Assembly (NCBI RefSeq): GCF_015169395.1
Contig: NZ_CP063458.1
Location: 2,604,001-2,668,000 of the forward strand
Direction: 5' to 3'
From: Humisphaera borealis
GTDB lineage: Bacteria > Planctomycetota > Phycisphaerae > Tepidisphaerales > Tepidisphaeraceae
DNA length: 64,000 nt
A program made the position numbers and the translations under genes. Of this stretch, positions 17,888 through 30,204 are shown in pieces; within the stretch, counting starts at the first letter, position 1, and the number at the start of each line of letters is the position of its first letter. The notes beneath the pieces were generated by a model. That model was not told the origin of the DNA. It did not search any database and was given only the letters and a program-made list of their open reading frames with translations.

Positions 17888-18616
17888 CTAGAGGCCCTCG
17901 TCCTTCGCCGCGGCGACAATTTCGTTCACGCGAACGCAGAAATTGTCATTTAACACCAGCACTTCGCCGCGCGCCACCAGTCGTTCGTTGACGAAGACAT
18001 CGACCGGGTCGCCGGCAAGTTTGTCCAGCTCGACCACGGACCCTTCTGCCAGCCGCAGGACATCCTCGACGAGCATGCGGGACCGACCCAGTTCAATCTT
18101 GACGTTCAGTTCGACGTCGCGAAGCAGGTCGATGCTCGAGACCTGCGCGTCCTGGATGACCTGGTTAAAATTCGGAAGGTTGAACGGATCGGCATCGACG
18201 GAGGCAGCGACGCTGCCCGATGCAAACCCCGACTGCGACATATCTGCCCCCGAAGCCCCGGGGTCCTCGAACGTCGCCTGGCGCAACATCTCTTCAATCG
18301 ATGCCTGATCCGGGAGCCCGGACAGCAATGCATCGGCCGAGGGGATGTCCTGAGCTGGCCCAGCACCGGTGGACGCCGCGGCAGCAGCGCCGGCTCCAAT
18401 CCCGAGGTCCGGGGGATCGACCGCGCCAGCACCGGCCGCATCGGTAAAGGTGGCGGCCTTGGCGAGCATTTGCTCGATGGAAATATCGTCAGCGGAATCG
18501 CCGGTGGCGGCAGCGTCGGCAGGTGCCGGGACAGCTTGGGGTGTGGGGTCGGCGGCTGTGCTCGGAAGGGGATCCGGCGTAGCGCCCGCCGTCGGGGAAG
18601 GGGATTCTTCGGCCAT
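17888..18616 (-). CDS. fliN: Flagellar motor switch protein FliN with long N-terminal extension
   Basis: C-ring component controlling rotation and export. The last 85 or so residues are the SpoA/FliN domain ([55 protein letters not shown]). The first 155 residues are Ala/Pro/Asp-rich and carry two similar helical motifs, [13 protein letters not shown] (about 45-57) and [12 protein letters not shown] (about 104-115), which look like duplicated docking peptides. The protein is 242 residues against about 100-140 in most FliN. No fliM is in the window. Confidence 0.92.
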
Positions 18617-18702
18617 GGTTCACCATCCTTGGCGGCCGTAGCGCGACACCCATCCTTGGGCATCGTTGCAACCCGAGTTCCAGAAGCACTGCGGCCGCGT
18701 GA

Positions 18703-19350
18703 TCAGTAGTCAGCGCGGAACGGAATGCATCGGGGCACGAGCACCTCGTCGATCGTTCCCTTTTCGAGAATCTCGTCGAGCTGGTGCTTGATCTGCCGGC
18801 GAAGCGTTTCGAGCCCTGGCTCTGAACCTCCGCCGAGCTTCTCTGGATCGCTCTGGGCAATAATCGTTCGAATTCGGTCGGTAATCAAGGCCTTGCGGGC
18901 GGCAATTGTAGTTTTTACGGCTTCTTCGCGATCCCCTTTGAGCGAGACGAAGATGCTGACATCGAAGATGAGGGTACGTCCGGAGACTTTGTTGGGCGCG
19001 CGCATCTCGATCAGTTGGAGTTCGACGATTTTTTTATCTTTCGAGCCACCGGGTGCTCCACCGCCCCCACCGCCGTGCCCGTCACCGTGAGCATCTCCGT
19101 GGGCGTCGCCGCCGTGTTCGTCATGGGCATCAACGGCGCCGGCGGCGGCATCGGCCGACTTCGGGCCGGCCCCCAGGAACTTGATGCCACCAATGATGAT
19201 GACCGCCTCGATGAGCATGATGACGCCCATGAGGATCGGCGTTTTGGAAAGGAAGCCCCCACCGGCGGCGGCCGCTTTCTTGTCGCCTTCAGCGCCGGCC
19301 GGCTTCTCGTCGGGCTTTTTCTCTGCCTTTTTCTCGGCCTTATCGGACAT
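18703..19350 (-). CDS. fliL: Flagellar basal body-associated protein FliL
   Basis: Single-pass membrane protein that associates with stators. The 215 residues begin with a Lys/Glu-rich cytoplasmic segment, then one transmembrane helix (about 37-59), then a His/Asp/Gly-rich linker (about 73-98, with DAHGDAHGDGH), then a FliL periplasmic domain (LIFDVSIFVSLKGDREEAVKTTIAARKALITDRI). It is the first gene of the minus-strand operon in this window; the operon promoter should lie between 19351 and about 19500. The His-rich linker is unusual and could bind metal. Confidence 0.88.
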   Translation of the reverse strand: MSDKAEKKAEKKPDEKPAGAEGDKKAAAAGGGFLSKTPILMGVIMLIEAVIIIGGIKFLGAGPKSADAAAGAVDAHDEHGGDAHGDAHGDGHGGGGGGAPGGSKDKKIVELQLIEMRAPNKVSGRTLIFDVSIFVSLKGDREEAVKTTIAARKALITDRIRTIIAQSDPEKLGGGSEPGLETLRRQIKHQLDEILEKGTIDEVLVPRCIPFRADY

Positions 19351-23506: not shown

Positions 23507-23779
23507 ATGGCCAAAGCGAATGTAGACCCGGCAGAAGTTCGCCGGTTCGCCCAGGAACTGAACCGATTCAACAACGACCTTCACGGCCTGCTTTCGGCGC
23601 TACACGCCAAGATGCGTGCCCTCGAATCCACCTGGCGCGACCAGGAACAACGCAAATTCTCCGAGGCGTTCGAGGCCACGGTCAAAACCCTGGGCAACTT
23701 CCTCGACACCTCGCACGAACACGTGCAGTTCCTGGCCAAGAAGGCGACGTTGATCGAAGAGTACTTGAAGCAGCACTAA
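23507..23779 (+). CDS. WXG100/EsxA-like small helical protein
   Basis: The 90-residue protein is predicted as two helices joined by a turn at STWRDQEQRKF. This is a W-x-D variant of the W-x-G turn of WXG100 secretion substrates, with the trailing F and E spacing kept. There is no signal peptide. A C-terminal YxxxD/E export signal is not evident (the end is EEYLKQH). ATG 23507 has GGAG upstream. A GGCACC-GGA-GGTGCC hairpin follows the stop at 23781-23795. It is the first gene of the type VII-like locus. Confidence 0.75.
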   Translation: MAKANVDPAEVRRFAQELNRFNNDLHGLLSALHAKMRALESTWRDQEQRKFSEAFEATVKTLGNFLDTSHEHVQFLAKKATLIEEYLKQH

Positions 23780-23800
23780 CGGCACCGGAGGTGCCGTGGA

Positions 23801-23884
23801 GTCGGAAGTCAGAAGTCGGGAGTCAGAAGATTGCCGATTCGATGACGACTTTCGACATTCCACTTCTGACTTCTGACTCCCGAC
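23801..23884. repeat. Heptad-phased palindromic repeat HE-6
   Basis: The element is 84 bases, 12 units of 7 bp. Left units are GTCGGAA, GTCAGAA, GTCGGGA and GTCAGAA; right units are TTCTGAC, TTCTGAC and TCCCGAC, so the arms pair in register. It lies between the WXG100-like gene and the coiled-coil gene of the type VII-like locus. Confidence 0.9.
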
Positions 23885-23908
23885 TTCAGGGCCGCTACGC
23901 GGCACGCT

Positions 23909-24736
23909 ATGTCCGACCTCGCCCGCATAGATTCGATCGACGTCCTTCGCGACTTTCGGGCGCAGGTCTGGAAGTTCGCCGAGGCCGCCAAGGTGGCCCT
24001 CGGCGACGCCGAGTCGGAACTGACACGCACCATCATGTGGTTGGAAACCGAGCAGACAGCCTACTGGGCCGGGCAGATCCGCAAGCGCACCGACCTGGTC
24101 TCGCGGGCGGCGGAAAAGCTTCGGGAAAAACGAGTGTTCAAGGATGCCAGCGGACGCGTCCCGTCGGCAGTGGACGAAGAAAAGGCTTTGCGGGTCGCCA
24201 AAGCCAAACTCGAAGAAGCCGAGGAAAAGGCCGCCGCGACCAAGCGGTACATCCGCGTCCTCCAGAAGACGGCCGACGACTACAAAGGCGCGATCGCCGG
24301 AATCGCCGCGTTTGTGGCGTACGACATCCCGCTGAGCGTCGCCCGGCTCGACAAACTTTCGGACATCCTGCGCCAATACGTGGACCTGACACCGGCCGGT
24401 CAGGGCGGCGAAGGATCGGAATCCGTCGGCGAAGGCAGCGGGTCATCGACGACCACCCTGATGGTCCGTTCGCCAGACAGCACGGACAGCGACACCCAGC
24501 CTGCCGAAGACCTGCCCGATTTCCCGTCGTTCGAGCCGCCACAGGTCGTGCTGGTCCACACCCACAAGCCGAGCGGATTGATTCTGGCGGCCGACGGGAA
24601 GAGCGTTGCCGACGAAGGCAACCAGTATCGCAGGTTCGCCGACCTCGCCGAGGCTCAGGCCTACGCCGGGCGCAAGGCTGACAGCGATCCGTTGATCGAG
24701 TGTGCGATCTACAATGCCGCAAAAGTGCGGCTGTAG
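23909..24736 (+). CDS. Coiled-coil protein of the type VII-like locus, unknown family
   Basis: The 275-residue protein is predicted mostly helical for residues 1-165 (long Lys/Glu/Ala heptads; AKLEEAEEKAAATKRYIRVL). An acidic Ser/Gly/Thr linker follows (about 168-205), then a small C-terminal domain (PQVVLVHTHKPSGLILAADG to the end). There is no signal peptide. The helical part could be a WXG/LXG-superfamily-like substrate or a chaperone/adaptor, but I do not recognise a family. ATG 23909 lacks a clear ribosome binding site. The next gene starts 21 bases after its TAG stop. Confidence 0.7.
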   Translation: MSDLARIDSIDVLRDFRAQVWKFAEAAKVALGDAESELTRTIMWLETEQTAYWAGQIRKRTDLVSRAAEKLREKRVFKDASGRVPSAVDEEKALRVAKAKLEEAEEKAAATKRYIRVLQKTADDYKGAIAGIAAFVAYDIPLSVARLDKLSDILRQYVDLTPAGQGGEGSESVGEGSGSSTTTLMVRSPDSTDSDTQPAEDLPDFPSFEPPQVVLVHTHKPSGLILAADGKSVADEGNQYRRFADLAEAQAYAGRKADSDPLIECAIYNAAKVRL

Positions 24737-24757
24737 GGTCCGACGCAGGAGAACCCC

Positions 24758-24979
24758 ATGGGTCTATTTGAAGGCAAGGGCCAACTCGACCGCGCGACCA
24801 AGGACCTGATGGCCCGATGGTCGGTCGTCCGCGCGAGCTGGCGGGACAACGTGGCCGCCGACTTCGAACAGCAGACGCTTCTGCCGCTTCAGCAGCATGT
24901 AAAGAACGCGACCTCGGCGATGAGTTCCGCGGCGTCGCTCATTACGCGGATCAAGAGCGAAGTCTCGGACCGGTCGTAA
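24758..24979 (+). CDS. Second WXG100-like small helical protein
   Basis: The 73-residue helical protein has an SWRDNVAADFEQQ turn near residue 27, matching the STWRDQEQRKF turn of the first small protein of this locus. Two helices flank the turn. The pair is reminiscent of EsxA/EsxB heterodimers. No signal peptide and no cysteine. ATG 24758 has a good GGAG site. It lies 21 bases after the coiled-coil gene and 139 bases before the ATPase gene. Confidence 0.7.
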   Translation: MGLFEGKGQLDRATKDLMARWSVVRASWRDNVAADFEQQTLLPLQQHVKNATSAMSSAASLITRIKSEVSDRS

Positions 24980-25118
24980 CGGGCGATGAAGCGGACTCGC
25001 GTCCGGTGCCGCCGGCCCATGGCACTCGCGACCCCGTGCGATCCTTGTTCGTCGGGTCGCAGCCGCGCCATCCTGCGGTACACTCACACACCATCGATAG
25101 ACCTCACGGGAGCCCGCC

Positions 25119-28100
25119 TTGACCCTCATCACCACCGACCTGCCCGTCTCCGCCTCTCCGCCAGCCAAACCGCTGAGCCCTCCCGACGCCCAGCGCGCAG
25201 CCCTGCGAGACCTGGTGAGCCTGTCGACCGAATGCGCCGCCACCGAGAAACGCATCGATCGCGAACTGGCGGCAACGCTCGCCGAGTCGGCCGAGACATT
25301 AGAAAAGTCGCAGAAGTCGATTCGCATCCGCTTCGAAAGCCTTCGTGGCCAAGCGGCGCAGAAGAAGGACGAACTGCTCGCCGAGATTACCCAGAAGCAC
25401 GCCGCCGACCTGCTGGCGATCCGCCAGTCGGAGGAGCCGGCGCGCCGTCGGGCCGAGGCCGAACTGGAACAGGTCGAGCAACTCGTACAGAAGAAGACCG
25501 CCGAGGCATCCTGGCTTGCCGACAGTGATCTGGAAGTCACGCTGAACACACTGGCCGCGGAAGAGAAAAAAATCGCCGGCGAAGTGGGCGCCCAGCTTGC
25601 GCAGCTCGACGCGTTAGAGCAGGACATCATCCGCCAGGCCGTCACGTTCGGGCATCAGCCCGGCGAGGCCGATGTGTCGGTCGGTCGGCCGCCTGCGGCA
25701 AAGCATCCGAGCACGCTCGATGCCAATGACTCGCAGTCCACCGGGACGACCGACTCTTTGTCGGCCGACCTTTCGGCCTCCGGAACGAAAACGCCCTTGC
25801 TGGAGGAAGCCGCGGCGGCATTTGTCGTCACCCGGGAACAGCTCGATATTGCCGCCGCGAAAGTGCGGTCCCTGGGTTTACCCCGACTCTTCGTCGGAGT
25901 GACGCCGGCGCTGATCGTGTTCGTCGCGGTCATCCTGGCCGCGGGAGGAACCTGGGCGGCGACGAACCTGGAACAGCCGAACTTCGTGGCGATCGGCATC
26001 GGCGGTGGCGCGGCGCTGCTCGTCTGCCTGATCATCGGCGCGATTCTCAAACGCGCCGCGAAACAGCAGGTGGTGCACGCGTTCGGCGAGTTCGAGCAGT
26101 CACTGGCCAAAGCCCGGGCGGCATCGTCGGCGCAGCTCGAAGCGGCCGACGTCGCGCGCCATCGCGCCCGCCAGCGGGCCACCCACAAGCGCGATACCGA
26201 AATCCGAATGGCGCGGGAGAAGTACGCGCCCGGTTATGCCAACGCCAAGAAGAGGATCGATGCCGCGCTCGCGACCATCGCCGAGCAGGCCACCGCCGGC
26301 CGGGCCGCAGTGAACGCCGCCCGTGACGCCGCACTGGCCGACGCAACCGCCCGCATCGACAAAACCGCACGCGACATCGAGCAGCGGCTCGATCTCGACC
26401 TCCAGGGTGCCAAACTGCACCACGACCGGATCATCGGCCAGGCCCGCGAGCGATACGACCGCAGCCGGCTCGAACTCGAATCACGGCTGCGCGACGGCCT
26501 GCAAACAATCCAGGCACCGATCGAAGCCAACGCCTCCACCGGCCACACCGCGCCACACGACTGGGAATCGCCGGAGTGGGCAAACTGGAAGCCGCCGACA
26601 ACCTTTGCGCCGGGCGTTCGCTTTGGTCGGCTGCATGTCGATCTGACGCGCATTGCCCGTGCCGCCGCTGACGGTGCCGAAGTACGACTTGCCCTGCCAC
26701 CGCCCTTCAGCCTGCCGGCAACGCTCGCCTTCCCCAACCGCGCCAGCCTGCTCATCCAGGCCGATCGCGATGGCCGGGCCGACGCGATCCGTGCCATCCA
26801 GATGGTGATGTCCCGCCTGCTGGTTTCGCTTCCGCCGGGCCGGGTGCGCTTCACGCTGCTCGATCCCGTCGGCCTCGGCCAGAACTTCGCCGGTTTCATG
26901 CACCTGGCCGACCATGATGACCAGCTCGTCGGCGGGCGCATCTGGACGGAAGCCGAGCAGATCGACCAGCGCCTCACCAACCTGACCGGCCACATGGAAA
27001 CGGTCATCCAGAAGTACCTGCGGAACGAATTCGAAACGATCGACGACTACAACGCCCAGGCCGGCGAGCTGGCCGAGCCCTACCGCTTTCTGGTCATCAG
27101 CGATTTCCCGGCGAGCTTCTCGGATGAAGCCCTTCGCCGGCTCAGCAGCATCGCCAGCAGCGGGGCTCGGTGCGGCATCTACACGCTGATTTTTCAGGAC
27201 ACCCGCCAGACGACGAACCTCGGCACGACGCTCGATGACGTGATCGCCAGCAGCGTCACGCTGTCTCGGGTGGAAGGCAGTTTCGTCTGGCGTGATCCGG
27301 TTTTCGAACAGTTTCCTCTCACCCTCGAACCGCCGCCCAGCGAAGGGGCGCTGACCAGGATTCTCGACAAGGTCGGCAAGGGCGCGAAAGAAGCCGCCCG
27401 TGTGGAGGTGCCGTTCGAAACGATCGCCCCGCCGCCGGGCAAGTTCTGGTCACTCGACAGCGGCGGCGACGTCCACGTGCCGGTCGGCCGGATGGGCGCG
27501 ACACGGTTGCAGCTCATGCGCCTCGGCAAGGGTGTCGCCCAGCACGTGCTGATCGCCGGTAAGACCGGCTCGGGTAAGTCGACCCTGCTCCACGCGCTGG
27601 TGACGAACCTGGCCCTCTGGTACTCGCCGAACGAGGTCGAGTTCTACCTGATCGACTTCAAGAAAGGCGTCGAGTTCAAGACCTACGCCACCTACAACCT
27701 GCCGCACGCCCGGGCGATCGCGGTGGAAAGCGACCGCGAGTTCGGCCTGAGTGTGCTGCAGAAGCTCGACGCCGAGTTGTCCCGGCGGGGCGAACTATTC
27801 CGCGCGGCCGGGGTTCAGGACCTGGGCAGCTACCGCAAGTCGCCAAATCCGCAGATCATGCCGCGAACGCTGCTGATCGTTGACGAATTCCAGGAGTTCT
27901 TCAGCGAAGACGACAAGCTCGCCCAGGATTCCAGCGTGCTGCTCGACCGGCTGGTGCGGCAGGGCCGTGCGTTCGGTATTCACTGCCTGCTGGGGTCGCA
28001 GACGATCGCCGGCGCTTCGGGCCTGCCCCGCAGCACGATCGGCCAGATGGCGGTCCGCATCGCGCTGCAGACGAGCGAGGCCGATTCGCAGCTCATCCTC

Positions 28101-29159
28101 GGCGACAACAACTCCGCCGCCCGGCTGCTGTCCCGTCCCGGCGAGGCGATTTACAACGACCAGGGCGGCTTGGTCGAAGGCAACAGCCCGTTCCAGGTGG
28201 CCTGGCTCAGCGACGAGCGAAAGGATCGCTACCTGCAGCAGGTTCGCGAAGCGGCGGATCAACAGGCCATCAAAACCGCCGACGCGATCGTGTTCGAAGG
28301 CAACGCACCGGCCGATCTATCGAAGAACCGCCGGCTGATGGAGTTGATGACCTCGCGCCAGCCGCAGCAGGGCCCGCCGCGGGCGTGGCTCGGCGAGCCG
28401 GTGGCGATCAAGGACCCCACCGCCGTCACACTTCGCCGCCAGAGCGGTGCGAATGTCTTGGTCATCGGTCAGTCGGAAGAACCGGCGCTGGCTACGCTGC
28501 TGGCGTCGATGATCTCGCTCGCGGCGCAGCTCCCCGCCGGCGATTCGGTCGCCGCCCCGACGTTCTATATCTTCGATGCCACGCCGACCGATTCGACGCT
28601 GTTCGGATCCTTCGCGAAGGTGAAACAGTCGCTGCCGCACAAGAGCAAGCTCGTCGAATGGCGGGCCACGCCCGAGGCGATCAACGACATCGCGACTGAG
28701 GTCATCCGCCGGCGCGACGAGCAGGACCAGACCGCCGGGCCGATCTTCCTGTTCATCTACGGTTTGCAGCGTTACCGCGTATTGCGAAAGGGCGAAGACG
28801 ACTTCGGCTTCTCGATCGGCTCCAGCGACGAACCCAAACCCGCCGACCCGGGCAAGCAGTTCGCCGACATCCTCAAAGAGGGCCCGCCCGTCGGCGTGCA
28901 CACGATCGCCTGGGCCGACACCGCGACGGCGGTCGATCGAACGCTGGACCGCAACGCGATGCGCGAGTTCGACAGCCGGGTGCTCTTCCAGATGGGTGCC
29001 AATGACAGCAGCAACCTGATCGACTCCCCTGCCGCCAACAAGCTCGGGTTCCACCGGGCCCTGGTCTACAGCGAAGAGCAAGGCGTCATGGAAAAGTTCC
29101 GCCCGTACGGACTTCCGGCCGAGCAATTCCTTGCGACAGTGCGGGGAAAAATGAAGTAG
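25119..29159 (+). CDS. Membrane FtsK/SpoIIIE ATPase, EssC/EccC-like
   Basis: This protein of 1346 residues is the motor of the type VII-like locus. An N-terminal coiled coil (about 30-190) precedes two transmembrane helices (about 258-281 and 289-311) and another coiled coil (about 320-450). Three ATPase-like modules follow. The first is degenerate (near 540-720, no P-loop lysine). The second is canonical: Walker A IAGKTGSGKSTLL near 812 and Walker B TLLIVDEFQEFF near 917. The third is degenerate (IGQSEEPALATLL near 1115). Three modules in series fit EccC/EssC more than FtsK, which has one. TTG start at 25119 with GGGAG seven bases upstream. Its TAG stop is part of a family D repeat. Confidence 0.85.
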   Translation: MTLITTDLPVSASPPAKPLSPPDAQRAALRDLVSLSTECAATEKRIDRELAATLAESAETLEKSQKSIRIRFESLRGQAAQKKDELLAEITQKHAADLLAIRQSEEPARRRAEAELEQVEQLVQKKTAEASWLADSDLEVTLNTLAAEEKKIAGEVGAQLAQLDALEQDIIRQAVTFGHQPGEADVSVGRPPAAKHPSTLDANDSQSTGTTDSLSADLSASGTKTPLLEEAAAAFVVTREQLDIAAAKVRSLGLPRLFVGVTPALIVFVAVILAAGGTWAATNLEQPNFVAIGIGGGAALLVCLIIGAILKRAAKQQVVHAFGEFEQSLAKARAASSAQLEAADVARHRARQRATHKRDTEIRMAREKYAPGYANAKKRIDAALATIAEQATAGRAAVNAARDAALADATARIDKTARDIEQRLDLDLQGAKLHHDRIIGQARERYDRSRLELESRLRDGLQTIQAPIEANASTGHTAPHDWESPEWANWKPPTTFAPGVRFGRLHVDLTRIARAAADGAEVRLALPPPFSLPATLAFPNRASLLIQADRDGRADAIRAIQMVMSRLLVSLPPGRVRFTLLDPVGLGQNFAGFMHLADHDDQLVGGRIWTEAEQIDQRLTNLTGHMETVIQKYLRNEFETIDDYNAQAGELAEPYRFLVISDFPASFSDEALRRLSSIASSGARCGIYTLIFQDTRQTTNLGTTLDDVIASSVTLSRVEGSFVWRDPVFEQFPLTLEPPPSEGALTRILDKVGKGAKEAARVEVPFETIAPPPGKFWSLDSGGDVHVPVGRMGATRLQLMRLGKGVAQHVLIAGKTGSGKSTLLHALVTNLALWYSPNEVEFYLIDFKKGVEFKTYATYNLPHARAIAVESDREFGLSVLQKLDAELSRRGELFRAAGVQDLGSYRKSPNPQIMPRTLLIVDEFQEFFSEDDKLAQDSSVLLDRLVRQGRAFGIHCLLGSQTIAGASGLPRSTIGQMAVRIALQTSEADSQLILGDNNSAARLLSRPGEAIYNDQGGLVEGNSPFQVAWLSDERKDRYLQQVREAADQQAIKTADAIVFEGNAPADLSKNRRLMELMTSRQPQQGPPRAWLGEPVAIKDPTAVTLRRQSGANVLVIGQSEEPALATLLASMISLAAQLPAGDSVAAPTFYIFDATPTDSTLFGSFAKVKQSLPHKSKLVEWRATPEAINDIATEVIRRRDEQDQTAGPIFLFIYGLQRYRVLRKGEDDFGFSIGSSDEPKPADPGKQFADILKEGPPVGVHTIAWADTATAVDRTLDRNAMREFDSRVLFQMGANDSSNLIDSPAANKLGFHRALVYSEEQGVMEKFRPYGLPAEQFLATVRGKMK

Positions 29160-29226
29160 GGTCCGCCTTGGCGGACGCGATCGACCCGCGCAATTGCCGC
29201 TCCCGCGTCCGCCAAGGCGGACCCTA
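29157..29226. repeat. Dispersed paired-hairpin repeat, family D, copy 2
   Basis: A perfect 23-bp inverted repeat: TAGGGTCCGCCTTGGCGGAC plus GCG at 29157-29179, and its complement at 29204-29226. Each arm also contains the TCCGCC-TT-GGCGGA hairpin, so a cruciform-like fold is possible. The first three bases are the stop codon of the EssC-like gene. Confidence 0.92.
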
Positions 29227-29277
29227 TGGCGGCTGTCGTTTGCTGTTTCACCCCCGCGTCATTACATTCCCCCACCT

Positions 29278-30204
29278 ATGAAGGCGGAACGGCGGCACGA
29301 GCTGCAGGAAAATTCGTTGGTTCGAGGGGTCCGGACTTTCCCACAGTTCTGGAAGGACTACGGGTCTAAAATCTCGTTGGTCATCATTCTCTTTCTGCTA
29401 TCGCTGGTGCTGGTGCGCTACTGGCTGAACAGCCGGGAAGTAACCCAGCAGGCGATCGCCGAGCAGCTCACCAGCGCGCGGTCGGTGCTGGAGCAGTATC
29501 GCCAGGGGAACGCCGGCTCGTCGGTTCTCGACGACGACGCACAGACACGGCAGTTCCTGGTGATGGCCTCGCGGCAGTTGGGCGATGCCTCGATCCCCAT
29601 CGTCTTTCTCGGACCGGAAGCCGAGACGCGCATCCGCGGCCGGGTGAAGGAAAAGGTGGAAGCGGCCGTCGCCGAAACACTCAAGAACTCGTCCGACCCG
29701 GCCCGCCAGGCCGAGGCAACCCTGCTTCGCGCCGACCTGAACCTGCACTTCGGTCTGCTCGCGTTCGCCGAAAGCACCGCAGCGCCGGCCACCCAGCCGA
29801 CGACCAAGGCGTTCGACAAGACGCCGGAGCAGTACTTCGAGTCGGCCGCGAAGGACTACGCCGAGCTGATCGCCCAGGCGGCAAAGATTCCCGCCCGCAC
29901 GGCAACTGCGGCCCGCTTCGGCATGGCCGCGGTTCACGAGAACCGAGACGAACGCGACAAGGCCAAGGCGATCTATGACGACATCGCCAAGAGCGGCCCT
30001 GACGCGACGGTGAAGAAATTGGCGGCGGCCCGCATCGACCTGCTCGTCCGCATTCCCGCCAACCCGCTGCTCGGCCCGCCGAGCAAGCCCAAGCCGACCA
30101 CCGCTCCAGCCACCACGCAGGCGACGACCGGGCCGGCGGCGACCGCACCGGCCGCCACGCAACCCACTGCAACGCCCGCGACGAAGCCTTCCACGCAGCC
30201 GTGA
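29278..30204 (+). CDS. Single-pass membrane TPR-like protein (YfgM-like)
   Basis: The protein has 308 residues from the ATG at 29278. It has a short cytoplasmic N-terminus, one transmembrane helix (about 33-53, ISLVIILFLLSLVLVRYW), and a helical periplasmic part with TPR-like repeats (AEATLLRADLNLHFGLLAFA; TATAARFGMAAVHENRDERD). A Thr/Pro/Ala-rich C-terminal tail follows. It resembles YfgM-like periplasmic chaperone partners. Co-orientation with the type VII-like ATPase suggests but does not prove a shared role; a family D repeat separates them. Confidence 0.65.
   Translation: MKAERRHELQENSLVRGVRTFPQFWKDYGSKISLVIILFLLSLVLVRYWLNSREVTQQAIAEQLTSARSVLEQYRQGNAGSSVLDDDAQTRQFLVMASRQLGDASIPIVFLGPEAETRIRGRVKEKVEAAVAETLKNSSDPARQAEATLLRADLNLHFGLLAFAESTAAPATQPTTKAFDKTPEQYFESAAKDYAELIAQAAKIPARTATAARFGMAAVHENRDERDKAKAIYDDIAKSGPDATVKKLAAARIDLLVRIPANPLLGPPSKPKPTTAPATTQATTGPAATAPAATQPTATPATKPSTQP

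What the first reader, a model, noticed from the sequence alone, without database searches (positions are those of the whole stretch)
23507..30204. Minimal type VII secretion-like locus in a diderm planctomycete
Two small proteins with a shared S/T-W-R-D turn (WXG100-like) flank a coiled-coil protein and precede a 1346-residue membrane ATPase with three ATPase-like modules, of which only the middle one keeps Walker A and B. EccC/EssC also have three modules, but there the first is usually the active one. EccB, EccD, EccE, EssA, EssB and EsaA homologues are absent. A TPR membrane protein follows. If real, this is a distinct T7SS branch adapted to a cell with an outer membrane.
Basis: partly seen in the sequence, partly recalled or inferred. 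Interest (0 to 1): 0.82.

Follow-up and report, generated by a model that had tools for sequence, protein, structure and literature searches.

The report
Compact type VII-like secretion cassette
Four neighbouring planctomycete genes (two tiny WXG100-type proteins, a long helical-hairpin protein and a membrane-anchored pump ATPase) form a conserved cassette found across the phylum that probably exports proteins like a pared-down type VII secretion system, a kind noted in passing in 2012 but never tested.

Summary
Gene 1 (90 aa) passes the Pfam WXG100 cut-off. The 1346-aa ATPase has three FtsK-type modules, and only the middle one keeps Walker A and B. The order EsxA / coiled-coil protein (CC) / EsxB / ATPase holds in 17 of 20 relatives and about 60 of 80 planctomycete loci; most exceptions are contig ends. 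In 298 genomes of the class, EsxA and the ATPase each occur in 95, and together in 91. The TPR gene is not part of it. EssB, EccB, EccD and LXG are absent, with controls; the genome's YukD homologue belongs to an E1/JAB locus.

The kind is already known. Zhang et al. 2012 (PMC3482391) name planctomycetes among lineages with WXG proteins plus an ATPase with three FtsK domains, only the middle one active. CoCoNuT operons (PMC11090510) carry a version without membrane helices. Plasmid relatives form one clade with it, separate from EccC.

What is new here: a chromosomal, single-copy, phylum-wide branch with a predicted two-helix membrane anchor. Its CC is predicted to be a two-helix hairpin with a variable C-terminus (Imm33-like in 19 of 52), where the Helicobacter relative carries a WHH nuclease followed by a SUKH immunity gene.

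Best reading: a membrane-anchored pump that exports CC with its Esx partners. Secretion itself is untested.

The parts
23507..23779 (+). EsxA-like WXG100 protein, 90 aa, W-x-D turn at residues 43-45
   Evidence: Pfam WXG100 40.7 bits over cut-off 27.3; orthologues in 95 of 298 genomes of the class and 115 of 393 of the phylum, one copy each
23786..23899 (.). inverted-repeat element between esxA and CC; folds into a long hairpin; dispersed repeat of this genome, not part of the conserved cassette
   Evidence: 18-nt perfect arms, 40 nt apart; RNA MFE -67.4 kcal/mol, z -6.0; 17 matches in the genome, itself included
23909..24736 (+). CC: coiled-coil protein, 275 aa; long two-helix hairpin (residues 10-76 and 88-160) plus variable C-terminus; proposed cargo
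   Evidence: homologues between EsxA and EsxB in most relatives; AlphaFold2 pLDDT 93-99 over residues 11-160; Imm33-like C-terminal domain in 19 of 52 homologues but not in this one
24758..24979 (+). EsxB-like small protein, 73 aa, invariant W21 and W28-x-D30
   Evidence: 31-sequence alignment; no Pfam WXG100 match; fixed position before the ATPase gene
25119..29159 (+). EccC-like membrane-anchored FtsK/SpoIIIE ATPase, 1346 aa (TTG start)
   Evidence: FtsK_SpoIIIE 116.8 bits, EccCa TIGR03924 116.6 bits but below its 509-bit cut-off; best fold match EccC cytoplasmic domain 4nh0, E 1e-33
25887..26048 (+). predicted two-helix membrane anchor of the ATPase (residues 257-275 and 292-310), flanked by coiled-coil-like stretches
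   Evidence: hydropathy 2.7 and 2.5; at least two such segments in 61 of 71 near-full-length planctomycete homologues, at least one in 69
26661..27353 (+). ATPase module 1 (residues 515-745), degenerate, no Walker motifs
   Evidence: AlphaFold2 model; module HMM matches plasmid relatives but not EccC
27465..28208 (+). ATPase module 2 (residues 783-1030), the only one with Walker A (27558-27581) and Walker B (27867-27887)
28290..29123 (+). ATPase module 3 (residues 1058-1335), degenerate P-loop (GQSEEP)
   Evidence: HMM of this module re-finds module 2 at E about 1e-9; AlphaFold2 model

Best explanation
A four-gene, membrane-anchored type VII-like export module. The ATPase is held in the inner membrane by its two-helix anchor and works as a ring (by analogy with FtsK/EccC) powered only by its middle module. 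EsxA and EsxB, small proteins with a W-x-D turn, bind the long helical hairpin of CC and present it to the ATPase, as Lap proteins do for LXG cargo. CC, with its variable C-terminus, is the main cargo. Shown here: gene content, order, co-occurrence, fold of the ATPase, single active module, predicted CC hairpin, kinship with WXG/FtsK operons of which one carries a nuclease-immunity pair in the CC position. Inferred: hexamer, complex formation, direction of transport. Unknown: how cargo would cross the outer membrane and what CC does outside.
For: WXG100 match over cut-off. EccC/EssC/FtsK are the best sequence and fold matches. Order EsxA-CC-EsxB-ATPase in 17 of 20 relatives and in 57 of 80 named loci, plus 4 where overlapping ORFs disturb the sorting. 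No other conserved neighbour. Co-occurrence 91 both, 4 and 4 alone, 199 neither. Two hydrophobic segments conserved. CC evolves faster than EsxA and the ATPase (31% mean identity to the window, against 57% and 59%), with a variable C-terminus, as expected of cargo. In the Helicobacter plasmid relative the CC slot holds a coiled-coil protein with a WHH/colicin-DNase domain followed by a SUKH immunity gene. TelA-LXG with two Lap proteins forms an EsxA-like composite export signal (PMC13355648).
Against: No secretion data. EsxB is not recognised by any WXG100 model. EssB, EccB and EccD are absent, so pore assembly is unexplained. Plasmid relatives mostly lack clear membrane helices, and CoCoNuT versions were reported to lack them, so the family can work without a membrane anchor. 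The Imm33-like name points to immunity rather than to a secreted effector. The CC-LXG fold match is not significant (8gmh_E, Foldseek E 0.67).
Confidence: 0.5

Rival explanations
1. An intracellular stress or conflict system: the ATPase and the WXG-type proteins act inside the cell on nucleic acid or on an effector (CC) that is released on a signal, and nothing is exported. In planctomycetes it merely became tethered to the membrane.
For: Closest relatives outside the phylum sit beside TerD genes, with a TerD-like domain fused to the ATPase by my reading of the sequence (Rhodococcus), or beside VWA, CARF, PP2C and Ser/Thr kinase genes (Caballeronia), and the CoCoNuT versions belong to restriction operons. 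These ATPases mostly lack clear membrane helices.
Against: No conserved Ter, VWA, CARF or nuclease neighbours in the planctomycete loci examined, and nearly all carry a membrane-helix pair. PADLOC hits are only generic FtsK/HerA similarity.
Confidence: 0.25
2. An export system for EsxA/EsxB alone, with CC as adaptor or chaperone (an EspG-like role) and an envelope-maintenance rather than antagonistic function.
For: Single copy per genome, no LXG and no second WXG100 family member. Many CC homologues are short, with only a hairpin and a tail. Imm33-like rather than toxin domains in the long forms.
Against: Toxin domain in the CC slot of the Helicobacter relative; rapid divergence of CC.
Confidence: 0.17
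3. Ordinary chromosome-partition FtsK with unrelated small genes beside it.
For: Middle module is FtsK/SpoIIIE-like.
Against: Separate FtsK-level matches in the same genomes; conserved four-gene order and co-occurrence; the tree places it apart from FtsK with 98/99 support.
Confidence: 0.02

Closest known systems
'Solo WXG' plus YueA-like ATPase with three HerA/FtsK domains, only the middle active (Zhang et al. 2012, PMC3482391, Table 1 footnote 6)
   Same: Planctomycetes named; WXG protein; three modules with the middle one active
   Different: The footnote calls them mobile T7SS versions and gives no gene set. Here the set is defined (EsxA, CC, EsxB, ATPase), is single copy, was found on planctomycete chromosomes and contigs and not on planctomycete plasmids, and is phylum-wide
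[quoted passage not shown]
   Same: Three ATPase domains with only the central one active, N-terminal coiled coil, two small WXG100-type proteins (one without the motif), a coiled-coil partner protein
   Different: CoCoNuT form lacks membrane helices and its coiled-coil partner carries a nuclease domain. The planctomycete form has a two-helix anchor and no nuclease domain, and stands alone
T7SSa to T7SSj of Gram-positive bacteria (PMC11217815)
   Same: EccC/EssC-type ATPase plus WXG100 protein
   Different: No EsaB/YukD, EccB, EccD or EssB partner; three modules instead of four; that survey covers only Actinomycetota and Bacillota
LXG toxin with two Lap partners of T7SSb (discussed in PMC13355648)
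   Same: A long helical cargo domain encoded with two small helical partner proteins
   Different: No sequence homology shown; fold match not significant; no LXG family member in 21 genomes searched

Membership tests
WXG100 superfamily (gene 1, EsxA) | Match to Pfam PF06013 over the curated cut-off | tested here: met
   40.7 bits against 27.3
WXG100 superfamily (gene 1, EsxA) | W-x-G turn | tested here: not met
   Turn is W43-x-D45, invariant in 31 homologues
WXG100 superfamily (gene 3, EsxB) | Match to WXG100 models | tested here: not met
   No Pfam or NCBIfam WXG100 hit; profile comparison with EsxA weak
Type VII secretion system | EccC/EssC-type FtsK ATPase with tandem NTPase modules | tested here: met
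   EccC is the best PDB sequence and Foldseek match, but TIGR03924 and TIGR03928 scores are far below their cut-offs
Type VII secretion system | ATPase anchored by two membrane helices | tested here: met
   Hydropathy only: 257-275 and 292-310; at least two segments in 61 of 71 homologues
Type VII secretion system | Further machine components: EccB/EccD (T7SSa) or EssB (T7SSb) | tested here: not met
   EssB absent in 21 genomes (control B. subtilis positive). EccB absent in 21 genomes and again with positive controls in six genomes. EccD absent with positive controls (one sub-threshold 76-residue hit in G018). EccE, EssA and EsaA not searched
Type VII secretion system | EsaB/YukD ubiquitin-like component | tested here: not met
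   The only YukD match in the genome lies in a Ubl-E1-JAB locus, and YukD also occurs in genomes without the ATPase
Type VII secretion system | ATPase-dependent secretion of the WXG100 protein | not testable with these tools
   needs a secretome or mutant
Three-module WXG/FtsK family (PMC3482391, PMC11090510) | Three FtsK modules, only the middle active | tested here: met
Three-module WXG/FtsK family (PMC3482391, PMC11090510) | Homology of the degenerate modules to other members rather than to EccC or FtsK | tested here: met
   Module 1 HMM 1e-32 to 1e-8 in all five plasmid members and module 3 HMM 1e-29 to 1e-14 in three of them (weak in Caballeronia and Helicobacter); none better than about 0.09 (module 1) or 0.06 (module 3) in EccC or FtsK. 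Middle-module tree: joint clade 98/99
Three-module WXG/FtsK family (PMC3482391, PMC11090510) | Two WXG100-type proteins and a coiled-coil partner encoded together | tested here: met
   the second small protein does not match WXG100 models, as also reported for the CoCoNuT form
Three-module WXG/FtsK family, CoCoNuT form | No membrane helices; nuclease domain on the coiled-coil protein | tested here: not met
   Membrane-helix pair present; no nuclease family in 52 CC homologues

The most novel reading that the evidence does not exclude
Planctomycetota carry, as a vertically kept chromosomal trait, a distinct membrane-anchored type VII secretion branch of only four proteins that works in cells with an outer membrane, with a dedicated hairpin cargo (CC) in place of an LXG arsenal. 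It would be the first type VII-like exporter shown to function in diderm bacteria outside the mycolic-acid group.
Probability: 0.4. Interest if true: 0.72.

Novelty: new variant of a known kind. Interest (0 to 1): 0.52.

Why it matters
Type VII secretion is described for Gram-positive bacteria, and the components needed to form its pore differ between phyla. A four-gene, single-copy version conserved across Planctomycetota, including the cultured Singulisphaera acidiphila DSM 18658, gives a small system in which to ask which parts are essential, and whether a type VII motor can serve a cell with two membranes. It also gives a gene set to a family that the literature found here knows only from a table footnote and from restriction-operon add-ons.

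Tried and rejected
TPR gene as a component: rejected, never beside the ATPase in 100 relative loci. A second type VII locus in the genome (ATPase paralogue at C1:3232209, L052): rejected, it is an FtsK-type domain at the end of a large protein, next to a Ser/Thr kinase gene. YukD match as an EsaB component: rejected, it lies in a Ubl-E1-JAB cluster. Known anti-phage family: PADLOC gives only generic FtsK/HerA matches. LXG cargo elsewhere: none in 21 genomes. Further conserved neighbours: none; the top family occurs in 7 of 80 loci at scattered positions. Assigning the three modules to D0-D1-D2 or D1-D2-D3: unresolved. The middle module scores higher against EccC D1 than D2, but Foldseek and VIA pair the model with D1-D2-D3 of 4nh0, and its second and third modules with the D2-D3 structure 4n1a. 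CC fold: only generic coiled-coil matches; LXG, PE/PPE or EspB kinship is neither shown nor excluded. EsxB as a WXG100 hairpin: not modelled (structure jobs used for CC and the ATPase). Recent transfer of the window cassette: no sign, GC and GC3 match the flanks.
Full report
What is there. The window lies in a complete 7.19-Mb chromosome (G000:C1:2604001-2668000); its relatives in public collections are Phycisphaerae, among them Tepidisphaeraceae and Humisphaera. Four co-directional genes stand between a hydrolase gene and a TPR gene: EsxA-like (23507-23779), a coiled-coil protein CC (23909-24736), EsxB-like (24758-24979) and a 1346-residue ATPase (25119-29159). EsxA passes the Pfam WXG100 cut-off and is the only WXG100 match in the genome. 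EsxB matches no WXG100 model but shows invariant W21, W28 and D30 in 31 homologues. EsxA shows invariant W43 and D45.

The ATPase. The middle module is FtsK/SpoIIIE (116.8 bits) and the best PDB sequences are EccC of T. curvata and EccC5. Only this module has Walker A and B, kept in 71 relatives. The module-3 profile re-finds the middle module of the same protein at about 1e-9, and the module-1 profile finds module 3 only weakly. AlphaFold2 (867 residues, pLDDT 84.5, pTM 0.71) gives consecutive alpha/beta modules; the top Foldseek hit is the EccC cytoplasmic domain 4nh0 (E 1e-33). The VIA match to 4nh0 spans the model (735 residues), but with a large rmsd of 13.5, probably from a different domain arrangement. 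Two hydrophobic segments (257-275, 292-310) are conserved in planctomycete homologues. An assignment to D1-D2-D3, as in the CoCoNuT paper, is not excluded.

Conservation. Of 41 genomes searched (own and 40 relatives), 24 hold a close orthologue of the ATPase; the others have only FtsK-level matches. Among 20 orthologue loci examined, 17 keep EsxA-CC-EsxB-ATPase; one more starts at a contig end; in G005 the EsxA-CC-EsxB trio sits on another contig, and in G012 EsxA does. In 298 genomes of the class EsxA and the ATPase occur in 95 each, together in 91; among genomes at least 90% complete and at most 5% contaminated, 73 of 75 carriers have both by my comparison of the two lists. Phylum-wide, 115 of 393 genomes carry EsxA, always one copy. 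The 80 best public loci are all Planctomycetota, including Singulisphaera acidiphila, Gemmataceae, Isosphaeraceae and Pirellulaceae; 57 show the full order, most others are contig ends, and a few keep the ATPase alone. No other neighbour is conserved, and the TPR gene is never there.

CC. The model is a long two-helix hairpin (10-76, 88-160; pLDDT 93-99 over residues 11-160) and a low-confidence C-terminus. CC diverges faster than EsxA and the ATPase (31% against 57% and 59% mean identity to the window copy). Its C-terminus varies: Imm33-like in 19 of 52 homologues, nothing recognisable in the others. Fold searches give only generic coiled coils.

Relatives elsewhere. tblastn with the ATPase found plasmid proteins that match across all three modules in Rhodococcus, Caballeronia and Deinococcus, and less completely in a second Rhodococcus and in Helicobacter. 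They stand with small helical genes and coiled-coil genes: in Rhodococcus AH-ZY2 a TerD-like domain is fused to the ATPase, followed by CC-like 314 aa, 73 aa and 87 aa genes (the TerD fusion is read from the sequence, not from a profile search); in Caballeronia an annotated WXG100 protein with VWA, CARF, PP2C and kinase genes; in Helicobacter an EsxA-like protein, a coiled-coil protein with WHH/colicin-DNase domain, a SUKH immunity gene and a 77-aa gene. Planctomycete EsxA profiles find one such small protein in four of the five (E 8e-19 to 6e-9; only 0.008 in the second Rhodococcus). Profiles of modules 1 and 3 find these ATPases but not EccC or FtsK, and a middle-module tree unites them with the planctomycete proteins (98/99) apart from EccC and FtsK (several long branches, so details are unsure).

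What is already known. Zhang et al. [quoted passage not shown] The CoCoNuT paper describes the same architecture without membrane helices, with two WXG100-type proteins and a coiled-coil nuclease, and cites an earlier TerY-P study for stand-alone versions (PMC11090510). The Gram-positive survey of T7SSc-j does not cover it (PMC11217815). I recall from memory, unverified, that WXG100 plus FtsK in planctomycetes was also mentioned around 2011.

How it most likely works. A membrane-anchored ATPase ring, driven by one active module, exports CC together with its Esx partners. The parallel is LXG cargo with two Lap proteins. Shown: composition, order, co-occurrence, fold family, single active module, membrane segments by hydropathy. 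Inferred: complex formation and transport. Not addressed: outer-membrane passage. The main rival is an intracellular stress or conflict role, because relatives without clear membrane helices sit in Ter, VWA/CARF and CoCoNuT operons. The absence of such conserved neighbours and the conserved membrane-helix pair in Planctomycetota favour the envelope reading.

Verdict. Real, conserved and coherent; a chromosomal, membrane-anchored variant of a family recognised in 2012 and 2024 but, as far as the papers found here show, never tested. Interest moderate.

Noticed in passing
window 23786-23899; L154-L156 and other places in G000: A dispersed inverted repeat (AGTCGGAAGTCAGA units; 18-nt perfect arms) sits between esxA and CC and folds into a hairpin of -67 kcal/mol (z -6). 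Similar sequence occurs at about ten other sites in the genome. It may act as a processing or attenuation element between esxA and the other three genes.
   Followed up: partly
L145:5483-8224 (G000:C1 about 5.775-5.778 Mb): A YukD/ubiquitin-like gene followed by a ThiF/E1-like gene and a JAB-type peptidase gene (the last two read from the sequence): a bacterial ubiquitin-like cluster. YukD matches also occur in relatives, including genomes without the WXG/ATPase cassette.
   Followed up: partly
L052:6944-11815: A 1168-aa protein with an AAA/STAND-like N-terminus and an FtsK-type C-terminal domain, next to a Ser/Thr protein kinase gene; probably another conflict system.
   Followed up: no
L136:9667-15097: Rhodococcus plasmid operon whose FtsK-type ATPase begins with what looks like a TerD domain and is followed by CC-, EsxB- and EsxA-like genes and further Ter genes.
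   Followed up: partly
L140:5740-10142: Helicobacter sp. plasmid version of the cassette with a WHH/colicin-DNase domain on the coiled-coil protein and a SUKH immunity gene.
   Followed up: partly
L035 (G005:C130): In one relative the ATPase gene lies directly after mraY in a mur gene cluster, away from its EsxA-CC-EsxB trio, which sits on another contig (L146).
   Followed up: no
window 17888-19350, minus strand: FliN-like and FliL-like flagellar genes upstream of the cassette (read from the sequence, no profile search).
   Followed up: no
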